From a virus: a DNA stretch of 64,000 bases. The stretch is taken from IMG/VR virus record IMGVR_UViG_3300010397_000006, positions 1 through 64,000 of that record; one strand, 5' to 3'. Both the position numbers and the translations under genes were made by a program. Position 1 is the first letter of the stretch; the number at the start of each line of letters is the position of its first letter. Below the pieces are notes generated by a model, which was given only the letters and a program-made list of their open reading frames with translations, was not told the origin of the DNA and made no database searches. Shown piece after piece: positions 2,969-55,394 of this stretch.

Positions 2969-3612
2969 GGGAAATCAACGTCCTTGTAAACTGCGAGGAA
3001 TCGGGGGTTGTCAGGGATGAGTTCTGCAAACTTGGCTTCAACGCCTGGAGTTGTGACCTTGTTCCCAGTCGAGTACCCGGCAATCATTTACAGATGGACG
3101 CCCTTGAAGCAATAAAGGTTATGAGGTGGGATTTGATGATTGCCTACCCTCCCTGCACGTTCCTCGCCAACAGCGGAGCCAAGCACCTGTATATAGGCGG
3201 ACGCAAGGAGAACGGGCGGAACGAGGAACGGTGGGAGAGTATGCGGAAAGGGGCTGAGTTCTTCAAGAAACTCCTGAACGCGGACATCCCCTTCGTCGGC
3301 GCAGAGAACCCCGTCATGCTTGGGTACGCGATAGACATCATCGGGGAACAGCCTGCCCAGACAATCCAGCCCTGGACGTTCGGTCACATGGAGCAGAAGG
3401 CAACCTGCCTGTGGTTGAGAAACCTGCCGCCTCTCAAGGAAACCCGCAATGTCTATGACGAAATGATGAGACTTCCCCGGAACGAACGGGAGCGCGTACA
3501 CTACATGCCGCCCTCGGAAACACGACAGAGGGATCGAAGCGTTACCTACAGGGGAGTGGCGGAAGCGAAGGCGAAACAGTGGGGAGACTGGGTGAGAGAA
3601 CGTCTGGGGTGA
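2965..3612 (+). CDS. Cytosine-C5 methyltransferase-like protein
   Basis: 215 residues from ATG 2965 (ATGA overlap). The first residues resemble the Dcm fold: NVLVNCEESGVVRDEF (motif I-like), then a YPPCT segment carrying the catalytic-type Pro-Cys, and AENP near residue 112 resembling the ENV motif. It is much shorter than a full C5 methyltransferase and lacks a recognisable target-recognition region. Phage members of this group are widely annotated as cytosine methyltransferases; activity should be regarded as probable only. Confidence 0.6.
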   Translation: MREINVLVNCEESGVVRDEFCKLGFNAWSCDLVPSRVPGNHLQMDALEAIKVMRWDLMIAYPPCTFLANSGAKHLYIGGRKENGRNEERWESMRKGAEFFKKLLNADIPFVGAENPVMLGYAIDIIGEQPAQTIQPWTFGHMEQKATCLWLRNLPPLKETRNVYDEMMRLPRNERERVHYMPPSETRQRDRSVTYRGVAEAKAKQWGDWVRERLG

Positions 3613-53640: not shown

Positions 53641-54111
53641 ATGAAAAGTATACCACTTACACAGGGGGGATTTGCTCTCGTTGACGACGAGGATTACGAA
53701 TACCTAAATCAATGGAAATGGAGTTGCACCAAAGATGGTTATGCTATAAGAGGAACTTCCGTAAAAGGGAAGAAGACTTGCTTATATATGCACAGAGTCA
53801 TAATGAACGCACCAAAAGGACTACAGGTTGACCACATAGATTCAAACAGGATAAATAATCAAAAGAAAAACCTTAGACTGTGTACTGGAAATCAAAACAG
53901 GATGCACCGTGGTTTACGACGAGATAATAAAAGCGGATATATTGGTGTAAAAAAATATAAAAGAAAAAGACAGTGGGCGGCTATTCTGACTTTAATGGGA
54001 AAACCTGTGTATATTGAGTACTTTGATTCCCCCGAAGAAGCCGCCCGCGCGCGAGATAAAGAAGCAAAAAAATATAGGGGGGAATTTGCTAAATTAAATT
54101 TTCCCGACTAA
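53641..54111 (+). CDS. HNH homing endonuclease with AP2 domain
   Basis: 156 residues on the plus strand among minus-strand genes. HNH part: YMHRVIMNAPKGLQVDHIDSNRINNQKKNLRLCT (read in parts), with NKSGYIGV, then an AP2-type DNA-binding domain (KKYKRKRQWAAIL, YFDSPEEAARARD). This is the usual HNH-AP2 phage homing nuclease. AT-rich. Confidence 0.85.
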   Translation: MKSIPLTQGGFALVDDEDYEYLNQWKWSCTKDGYAIRGTSVKGKKTCLYMHRVIMNAPKGLQVDHIDSNRINNQKKNLRLCTGNQNRMHRGLRRDNKSGYIGVKKYKRKRQWAAILTLMGKPVYIEYFDSPEEAARARDKEAKKYRGEFAKLNFPD

Positions 54112-54305: not shown

Positions 54306-54331
54306 AAACTCCCCGTGAAAACGGGGAGTTT
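54306..54331. terminator. Strong rho-independent terminator
   Basis: AAACTCCCCGT (54306-54316), GAAA loop, ACGGGGAGTTT (54321-54331). Followed by T-rich sequence on both strands, so it could end the plus-strand moron and the minus-strand RNA. Confidence 0.8.
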
Positions 54332-54341
54332 GCTTTAAAGA

Positions 54342-54644
54342 GGAACACCGAGTCGGCTGAGTATTATTTTTCAAGAATAATTGCCTATCGGTGTTCCAGA
54401 ACCGCTTACGGACTGCCTGCCGCTCGCGGAATGTATGGGCTTTTCCAGAGAAATGTTTCTTATCCTAACGCTCTATCGTTGAGCTACCCCGCCATGAAAT
54501 ATAGGGGGCGGGGGTGGGACTTAAACCCACAACCTTTAGGCGAAATTGTACTCCTTCTGGAAATTGCCATTGGATGATGCTGACGCTATTGGAGAGACGC
54601 TGTTTCTGTCGAAAAGACTGAATCTCACAATAACGCTACTCCCG
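54342..54644 (-). ncRNA. Precursor region of the permuted tRNA
   Basis: No gene. On the minus strand, UUUCCAGA (54563-54556) upstream of the tRNA halves pairs perfectly with UCUGGAAA (54449-54442) downstream, bringing the two open ends of the anticodon arm together. Further down, GGAACACCGA (54397-54388) pairs with UCGGUGUUCC (54351-54342), enclosing an AUUAUU/AAUAAU hairpin. A terminator follows. This could be a split intron or other processing structure; a group I core was not found. Confidence 0.55.
54464..54540 (-). tRNA. Circularly permuted tRNA (3' half before 5' half)
   Basis: Read on the minus strand. The 3' half comes first: CCUAA (54540-54536, positions 39-43), variable loop AGGUU, T stem GUGGG/CCCAC around UUUAAGU, acceptor CCCCGCC (54513-54507). 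A 13-base linker follows (54506-54494). Then the 5' half: acceptor GGCGGGG (54493-54487), UA, D stem GCUC/GAGC around AACGAUA, G26, and UUAGG (54468-54464, positions 27-31). All four stems pair perfectly (7, 4, 5, 5 bp). Position 8 is U, 14 and 21 are A, 18 is G, 15-48 is A-U. The elbow pair is A19-U56 instead of G19-C56. The split is in the anticodon loop, so the anticodon cannot be read with certainty (UAAGAA follows in the 5' half). No encoded CCA. Confidence 0.8.
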
Positions 54645-55394
54645 TTATTTTCCGTTGATATAGGAGAAAATCTTGCCACTTACCTTGTTCTCCTGTGTCT
54701 CAACGGTATTAGCGCGCTGTCTCGCCTGCTTTACTGCGCGCTGTAATCGCTCGATACGTTCAATCCGTTTCTTTTTGTCAGAAACAGTCAACATGCCAGA
54801 GTAAAGGGTGCGCTCTACTTCGTAGGCAGGGACATCGGTGGAAACAAGTTGAACTTGGGCGGGGTGTTCTTTAGTTGCATCATAGAGAACGATGGTCTTC
54901 TGGGTCTTTACGGTTCTAATCTGTTTCCGATTCCCAGATACCCAACAGCCCTTCGTTTCATCCCACGTCCAGTTCTCGCTATCTGGCAGGGTCGGAATGG
55001 TTAAGTATACCTTGTGAAGTTCCTCAAGGCGAGACTCAAGATTAAGGAGCGCGGTTGCCGACCATTTCTCAAGGAACACCTCCCCGTCCAGAACGACATC
55101 TGAAAACGCGGTAGTGTTGGCAGTCTCCTTTTCGATGGTCGTGTCGATGTATAGACCTGTGTTCTCAAGATACTCAGAGAGCGCAGAATCAACGTTTCCC
55201 GGCAGGGGTTTGTACTCGTCCTGAACATTGGGTTGGTCTTCGAGGATTTTTGCGAAGTGAGTTGTGATTCCCAGAAAACTTTCGGGGGTCGAGAAGCGGG
55301 ACGTGATTTCTTTTGCCGCCTCAGTCGTCCGAGAGAGCAAATCCTTTTCGATTGCAAGAAGTTCAAACAGTTTCCGCGAATGGTTGTTATTCAT
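54645..55394 (-). CDS. Conserved phage protein of unknown function
   Basis: 249 residues; ribosome site AAGGAGAAAAG. The start (KLFELLAIEKDLLSRTTEAAKEI) recalls a group of phage hypotheticals conserved near capsid genes. Central beta-rich part, C-terminal basic coiled coil. The leader carries ACGAAGCCAAG and an AT-rich promoter region with TATAGT; palindrome site 13 is farther upstream. Confidence 0.6.
   Translation of the reverse strand: MNNNHSRKLFELLAIEKDLLSRTTEAAKEITSRFSTPESFLGITTHFAKILEDQPNVQDEYKPLPGNVDSALSEYLENTGLYIDTTIEKETANTTAFSDVVLDGEVFLEKWSATALLNLESRLEELHKVYLTIPTLPDSENWTWDETKGCWVSGNRKQIRTVKTQKTIVLYDATKEHPAQVQLVSTDVPAYEVERTLYSGMLTVSDKKKRIERIERLQRAVKQARQRANTVETQENKVSGKIFSYINGK

What the first reader, a model, noticed from the sequence alone, without database searches (positions are those of the whole stretch)
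54464..54540. Circularly permuted tRNA gene in a phage genome
Seen: all four tRNA stems pair perfectly (acceptor 7, D 4, anticodon 5, T 5 bp) and the loop landmarks U8, A14, G18, A21 and the five-base variable loop are in place, but the 3' half lies upstream of the 5' half with a 13-base linker. Known: permuted tRNA genes are established in some algae and archaea, where splicing joins the halves into a circle that is then cut by RNase P and a 3' nuclease. I cannot say whether phage examples have been reported; ordinary tRNA searches would miss this one.
Basis: partly seen in the sequence, partly recalled or inferred. Interest (0 to 1): 0.95.

Follow-up and report, generated by a model that had tools for sequence, protein, structure and literature searches.

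The report
tRNA-mimic RNA paired with DUF7873
What looked like a scrambled tRNA gene in a phage is the tRNA-imitating part of a noncoding RNA that resembles bacterial Y RNAs and sits, in phages and in several groups of bacteria, directly behind the gene of one uncharacterised protein, DUF7873, which suggests an undescribed RNA-protein partnership.

Summary
In detail: minus strand 54540-54464 is a tRNA cloverleaf in permuted order, and chance is excluded (0 equal hits in 9.6 Mb of shuffles). Permuted order is how bacterial Y RNAs mimic tRNA, and Rfam's YrlA model aligns here end to end (38.3 bits, below its cut-off of 69). The ends that a permuted tRNA would have to splice are paired with each other in a 13-bp outer stem. 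No splicing (bulge-helix-bulge) motif is present. The record has no Ro60/TROVE gene, the usual Y RNA partner. Instead the RNA lies 82 nt behind DUF7873 (PF25283). That arrangement recurs in phages of six named host genera and in Myxococcota, Planctomycetota and Actinomycetota; in 30 of 30 Myxococcota DUF7873 loci the RNA lies downstream on the same strand. Acceptor-stem pairing holds in 32 of 32 divergent copies, and 20 of 21 pairs covary. Many relatives carry two permuted modules in tandem. My reading: a Ro60-independent, Y-RNA-like noncoding RNA forming a particle with DUF7873. Binding and function are inferred. I found no published description in the papers and databases searched here.

The parts
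54645..55394 (-). DUF7873 protein gene (249 aa), proposed protein partner of the RNA
   Evidence: Pfam PF25283, E 9.6e-68. AlphaFold2 model pLDDT 87.7, pTM 0.73. No convincing match to a solved fold.
54582..54636 (-). Domain I of the RNA, here reduced to a plain hairpin (GCGTTATTG...CAATAGCGTC). In many relatives this position holds a first permuted tRNA-like module.
   Evidence: Fold of the region; short motifs GGAG...CTCC and TCAGCAT resemble domain I of relatives. The homology of this part is inference.
54550..54563 (-). Outer (Y-like) stem, 5' strand TTTCCAGA-A-GGAGT
   Evidence: 13 bp in the minimum-energy structure, z = -3.16. Outer stems recur in relatives.
54464..54540 (-).
   Evidence: Rfam YrlA 38.3 bits, E 1.2e-5. 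Model R1, built without this sequence: 59.0 bits, E 3.9e-17, match 54561-54441, the only hit in the window.
54536..54540 (-). 3' half of the anticodon-stem equivalent, CCTAA
   Evidence: Pairs with 54468-54464; equivalent stem 81.6% paired across 25 relatives
54514..54530 (-). T arm, GTGGG TTTAAGT CCCAC
   Evidence: 98.4% of cells paired across 25 relatives
54507..54513 (-). Acceptor stem, 3' strand CCCCGCC
   Evidence: Pairs with 54493-54487. 7 of 7 pairs in 32 of 32 nonredundant copies with the strands located without using the pairing
54494..54506 (-). 13-nt linker closing the acceptor stem (CCCTATATTTCAT; no CCA)
   Evidence: Sequence; linker length in relatives 6-38 nt in the nonredundant set
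54487..54493 (-). Acceptor stem, 5' strand GGCGGGG
   Evidence: As for the 3' strand
54470..54484 (-). D arm, GCTC AACGATA GAGC
   Evidence: 96% of cells paired across relatives
54464..54468 (-). 5' half of the anticodon-stem equivalent, TTAGG
   Evidence: Pairs with 54540-54536
54442..54454 (-). Outer stem, 3' strand ATTTCTCTGGAAA
54342..54397 (-). 3' hairpin (GGAACACCGA...TCGGTGTTCC), position equivalent to the 3' hairpin of relatives
   Evidence: Sequence and fold. Its equivalence to the relatives' hairpin is inference.
54306..54331 (-). Terminator-like hairpin, likely 3' end of the transcript
   Evidence: 1 found, 1.7 expected by chance in that stretch, so weak on its own

Best explanation
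The element is domain II of a noncoding RNA transcribed with, or just behind, the DUF7873 gene. SHOWN by computation: the RNA has a permuted tRNA-like core (T arm, acceptor closed by a linker loop, D arm) on a stem formed by its own flanks; the core is kept by compensatory changes; and it follows DUF7873 on the same strand in phages and bacteria. INFERRED: the RNA works like a Ro60-associated Y RNA. DUF7873 takes the place of Ro60 and holds the basal stem and its conserved internal loop. The tRNA-like module (two in many relatives) is displayed to bring in, or compete for, tRNA-binding enzymes such as PNPase, tRNA-modifying enzymes or tRNA-cutting nucleases. In phages, where the cassette often lies among tRNA genes, it would serve RNA turnover or protection of tRNAs during infection. 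No tRNA is made from it.
For: YrlA covariance match over its full length. Published Y RNA (6CU1) is a circularly permuted tRNA mimic. DUF7873 directly upstream, with the module downstream of nearly every DUF7873 gene examined: phages, bacterial genomes and Streptomyces/Nonomuraea replicons, 30 of 30 Myxococcota loci. Acceptor pairing 32 of 32 against 2% for mismatched loci. 20 of 21 pairs with changes on both sides, 0 of 500 shuffles as good. Held-out window match E 3.9e-17. RNAalifold on 20 Myxococcota RNAs alone recovers both permuted modules, their outer stems and the 3' hairpin. No TROVE in the record. A TROVE-linked RNA in one DUF7873 genome (G030) matches the model at a separate locus.
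Against: No expression or binding data were available. DUF7873 has no known fold or RNA-binding match. The window's copy lacks the first module and has a diverged internal loop and an atypical D loop. Two bacterial DUF7873 loci (L160; L161, where the gene end looks disrupted) showed no module. YrlA's gathering score is not reached.
Confidence: 0.72

Rival explanations
1. A true circularly permuted tRNA gene: the precursor is joined at the anticodon loop into a circle, then cut by RNase P and a 3' nuclease into a working tRNA.
For: Perfect rotated cloverleaf, accepted by ARAGORN. CCA follows the acceptor in 12 of 32 relatives, far above the 0.5 expected.
Against: Ends paired in a 13-bp outer stem; strict bulge-helix-bulge 0 of 32; no conserved anticodon loop and the anticodon-stem equivalent incomplete in several relatives; CCT, not CCA, in the window; two tandem modules in many relatives; constant company of DUF7873.
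Confidence: 0.05
2. An ordinary Y RNA (YrlA) that binds a Ro60 protein supplied by the host, with DUF7873 a chance neighbour.
For: YrlA model match. Phage Y RNAs and Ro60 proteins have been reported.
Against: DUF7873 linkage recurs across phyla, while TROVE was found in only 4 of the 28 other DUF7873 genomes or records tested and not in the window's own record. The window scores 59.0 bits with the DUF7873-RNA model against 38.3 with YrlA (models of different size, so the comparison is only indicative). YrlA cut-off not met.
Confidence: 0.12
3. A tRNA-like control or processing element in the 3' part of the DUF7873 message (for example an RNase P or stability signal that sets DUF7873 levels), not a free-standing RNA.
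For: Same strand, roughly 80-630 nt behind the gene. CCA next to the acceptor in some copies could mark an RNase P site.
Against: Size and two-module architecture, a conserved internal loop and a terminator-like 3' hairpin suit an independent RNA. A regulatory element would not need a tRNA elbow and outer stem kept over such distances.
Confidence: 0.15
4. A decoy for anticodon nucleases or other tRNA-cutting defences, protecting phage tRNAs, with DUF7873 as its chaperone.
For: In Rhizobium, Vibrio, Arthrobacter and Gordonia phages the cassette lies among tRNA genes. A similar competitor role was proposed for YrlA (PMC7790460).
Against: No anticodon loop to present. Present in Myxococcota genomes as a chromosomal gene, which is not obviously counter-defence. 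No PADLOC match of note.
Confidence: 0.2

Closest known systems
YrlA-type bacterial Y RNA (Rfam RF02553), partner of Ro60/Rsr
   Same: Permuted tRNA-like module with D, T and acceptor arms on a stem formed by the RNA's own ends; beside a protein gene; known in bacteria and phages (PMC8394870, PMC12282133)
   Different: Below the Rfam cut-off; partner gene is DUF7873, not TROVE; often two permuted modules in tandem in one RNA of about 400 nt with its own conserved flanks (AAACTCAAACT, AATCGAC, CTTAAACG) and 3' hairpin
Circularly permuted tRNA genes of algae and Thermofilum (PMC3978253)
   Same: 3' half precedes 5' half; rotated sequence is a full cloverleaf
   Different: No bulge-helix-bulge at the junction; ends held in a long outer stem; no conserved anticodon; bacterial and phage setting
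Permuted two-piece tmRNA (RF04321)
   Same: tRNA-like end encoded with its 3' part first and a linker across the acceptor strands
   Different: No hit in the window at E 5, only weak hits in two relatives; no mRNA-like tag part was recognised
DUF7873 (PF25283), family of unknown function
   Same: The neighbouring protein is a clear member
   Different: No function, structure or RNA partner is on record in the sources searched

Membership tests
Circularly permuted tRNA gene | Rotated sequence forms a complete tRNA cloverleaf | tested here: met
Circularly permuted tRNA gene | Bulge-helix-bulge splicing motif at the ends | tested here: not met
   Window: central helix 3 of 4, no outer helix; 0 of 32 relatives
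Circularly permuted tRNA gene | Usable anticodon loop after joining, conserved in relatives | tested here: not met
   No loop is encoded as such; flanks differ and pair into an outer stem
Circularly permuted tRNA gene | Circular intermediate and mature tRNA | not testable with these tools
   Needs RNA data
YrlA Y RNA (RF02553) | Covariance score at or above the curated cut-off (69 bits) | tested here: not met
   38.3 bits
YrlA Y RNA (RF02553) | Permuted tRNA-like module with D, T and acceptor arms | tested here: met
YrlA Y RNA (RF02553) | Encoded beside a Ro60/Rsr (TROVE) gene | tested here: not met
   No PF05731 match in the 71,470-base record, which may be incomplete
YrlA Y RNA (RF02553) | Ro60-binding basal stem motif | tested here: inconclusive
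   A basal stem exists, but the Rfam alignment shows many non-standard pairs there; no specific motif test was run
YrlA Y RNA (RF02553) | Binds Ro60 and PNPase | not testable with these tools
   Needs binding assays
Permuted tmRNA (RF04321) | Covariance match and tag reading frame | tested here: not met
   No tmRNA from ARAGORN and no RF04321 hit
DUF7873-associated RNA (described here) | Permuted module on an outer stem, downstream of DUF7873 on the same strand | tested here: met
   Held-out match E 3.9e-17; DUF7873 82 nt upstream
DUF7873-associated RNA (described here) | Second permuted module (domain I) | tested here: not met
   Only a hairpin in the window; about ten relatives also lack it

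The most novel reading that the evidence does not exclude
DUF7873 and its one- or two-module tRNA-mimic RNA form a Ro60-independent ribonucleoprotein, present as a chromosomal gene in part of the Myxococcota and carried by many phages. It presents one or two tRNA-shaped heads to the translation or RNA-decay machinery: a second, unrelated protein solution to the Y RNA principle.
Probability: 0.5. Interest if true: 0.85.

Novelty: new variant of a known kind. Interest (0 to 1): 0.72.

Why it matters
Y RNAs are known as partners of one protein, Ro60. A permuted tRNA mimic tied instead to an unrelated protein family, in phages and in several bacterial phyla, would show that the tRNA-mimic tether is a general RNA-protein device. 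It gives DUF7873 a testable role and adds an RNA family that tRNA finders and Rfam cut-offs miss. It also warns that other 'permuted tRNA genes' in bacteria and phages may be Y-RNA-like modules.

Tried and rejected
Direct tRNA or tmRNA gene: ARAGORN finds none in the window. Known Rfam family at curated thresholds: only ordinary tRNAs in the relatives. DNA-level relatives of the window stretch among phages: only tRNA fragments, and no near match to 24 kb of the phage. A first pattern scan of viral contigs returned mostly tandem ordinary tRNAs, later separated by acceptor and anticodon pairing. A conserved third gene beside the cassette: neighbours are conserved only within a phylum, for example PEP carboxykinase in two planctomycete-phylum genomes. 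DUF7873 fold: Foldseek best E 0.056 with TM 0.10; VIA-align best Z 8.1 to TolC, which for long helices may mean nothing, so no relation is claimed. PHROGs, NCBIfam and PADLOC gave only weak matches to DUF7873. The key Y RNA papers (Chen 2014, Sim 2020) and the Weinberg 2017 motif paper were not held, so a description there or in other unheld work cannot be excluded. Coincidental likeness of domain I flanks to the 5' end of 16S rRNA was seen by eye and not pursued.

Full report
WHAT WAS CLAIMED.

The feature is on the minus strand. All stems pair (acceptor 7, D 4, anticodon-stem equivalent 5, T 5). Rotated, ARAGORN calls a tRNA for every anticodon loop tried, and none of 500 shuffles is called; in native order nothing is called. 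A scanner for permuted cloverleaves finds one hit in the window with all 21 pairs, and none with 20 or more in 9.6 Mb of shuffled sequence.

WHAT IT RESEMBLES. Rfam at relaxed threshold gives one convincing match, YrlA, the bacterial Y RNA family, over the whole model on 54562-54440 (38.3 bits, E 1.2e-5; the curated cut-off is 69). Bacterial Y RNAs carry a tRNA-like domain with D, T and acceptor arms on a basal stem that binds Ro60 (PMC8394870). The solved Y RNA superposes on tRNA as a circular permutation (PMC11472068). So permuted order is expected of a Y-like RNA. The fold of the native strand gives the tRNA-like module on a 13-bp outer stem made by its two ends (-42.8 kcal/mol, z -3.16). 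Those are the ends that a permuted tRNA precursor would have to splice together. The bulge-helix-bulge motif of known permuted tRNAs (PMC3978253) is not there: 0 of 32 copies.

THE NEIGHBOUR. Ro60 (TROVE) is not in the 71,470-base record. The gene 82 nt upstream of the outer stem on the same strand, 54645-55394, is DUF7873, PF25283, E 9.6e-68. Asking what lies behind other DUF7873 genes was decisive. In viral contigs and in phages of Rhizobium, Vibrio, Arthrobacter, Gordonia, Klebsiella and Pseudanabaena, permuted tRNA-like modules with outer stems follow the gene. The same holds in Candidatus Uabimicrobium, Myxococcota, planctomycetes and Streptomyces/Nonomuraea replicons. In Arthrobacter phage Mimi, Gordonia phage Phendrix, the Streptomyces replicons, two Myxococcota assemblies (L154, L156) and others there are two permuted modules in tandem. 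DUF7873 occurs in 30 of 195 Myxococcota and 14 of 392 genomes drawn from a planctomycete phylum.

STATISTICS ON THE RNA. With the strands located only by T-arm and D-arm landmarks, 32 nonredundant modules form 7 of 7 acceptor pairs in every case; crossing strands between loci gives 3.9 on average and 7 of 7 in 2%. The anticodon-stem equivalent has at least 4 of 5 pairs in 26 of 32 (23.5% in the control). An outer helix of 7 bp or more occurs in 22 of 32 (19.8% in the control). CCA follows the discriminator base in 12 of 32, where 0.5 is expected. Three picks with wrongly placed anchors (L003, L008 and one of two in L167) were removed by hand before this count. On an unguided MAFFT alignment of 25 modules without the window, 94.5% of cells pair, 20 of 21 pairs have changes on both sides, and no shuffle of 500 or slid register comes near. 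Related rows inflate such counts, but the sequences here come from different phyla and phages. A covariance model from that alignment finds the window's copy, which it had not seen, as its only hit in 64 kb: 59.0 bits, E 3.9e-17. In Myxococcota genomes the listed hits of 74 bits and above all lie 224-240 nt behind DUF7873; in all, 30 of 30 DUF7873 loci have the RNA downstream on the same strand, the thirtieth at 630 nt with 59 bits. Lower-scoring hits (around 50-69 bits) include one beside a TROVE gene in G030 and were otherwise not examined.

THE WHOLE RNA. RNAalifold on 20 Myxococcota sequences alone recovers two permuted modules, their enclosing stems and a 3' hairpin, with 22 of 85 pairs changed on both sides. 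Conserved unpaired stretches flank the stems: AAACTCAAACTCAG and CTCACTCCAGACTCAGCATTC in domain I, GATCNACCG and CTTAAACGTG in domain II. The window keeps domain II with its module, while domain I is a plain hairpin, as in about ten other one-module relatives.

MECHANISM. Shown: structure, covariation, conserved linkage. Inferred: a particle in which DUF7873 replaces Ro60, holds the basal stem and displays the tRNA-like head or heads to tRNA-binding enzymes, as Rsr and Y RNA do with PNPase. I put about 0.9 on 'noncoding tRNA-mimic RNA associated with DUF7873, not a tRNA gene', and about 0.4 on the tether model over decoy or regulatory roles. DUF7873 gave a confident model (pLDDT 87.7) without a convincing fold relative.

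NOVELTY. The permuted tRNA mimic is a known kind. The DUF7873 partnership, the tandem two-module architecture and the distribution are, as far as the held papers and libraries show, undescribed. The primary Y RNA surveys could not be read here, which limits that statement.

Noticed in passing
L068, L123, L071, L032, L050 and their records: Viral contigs with a TROVE gene also carry permuted tRNA-like modules. Some (L068, L123, L071) appear to keep an anticodon-arm-like hairpin 5' of the T arm (CTTCCACTGCTAATGGAG), a different break point from the window's.
   Followed up: partly
L028, L031, L126, L107, L054, L070, L065: Viral contigs with permuted tRNA-like modules but neither TROVE nor DUF7873 found in the record; several share a stretch like TTATTTCTNAAC. 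Possibly further partners, or incomplete records.
   Followed up: no
L168 3266-3345 (Klebsiella phage vB_KpM_FBKp24): An annotated 'tRNA-Sup-TTA' overlaps domain II of the DUF7873 RNA (3308-3402) and may be a misannotation of the permuted module.
   Followed up: partly
L002, L003, L132, L134, L135, L136, downstream of the module: In several one-module phages an ordinary tRNA follows closely, often with a similar acceptor stem (TTGAT.../...ATCAA); it may belong to the same transcript.
   Followed up: no
linkers of the modules: CCA follows the discriminator position in 12 of 32 copies, far above chance, though not in the window: either a relic of tRNA ancestry or an RNase P signal.
   Followed up: partly
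3' hairpin of L133, L155, L157, L163, L166 and the Myxococcota set (A3): The 3' hairpin often shows a loop with GGATA(T/C) or AGGAGGACA, resembling a ribosome-binding sequence.
   Followed up: no
window 53641-54111, + strand: HNH endonuclease with an AP2-like domain, convergent with the RNA.
   Followed up: no
L006/G023 and L131/W01: Phages that carry both DUF7873 with its RNA and a TROVE gene with a separate permuted module nearby (L140 3-115, L137 18-136).
   Followed up: partly
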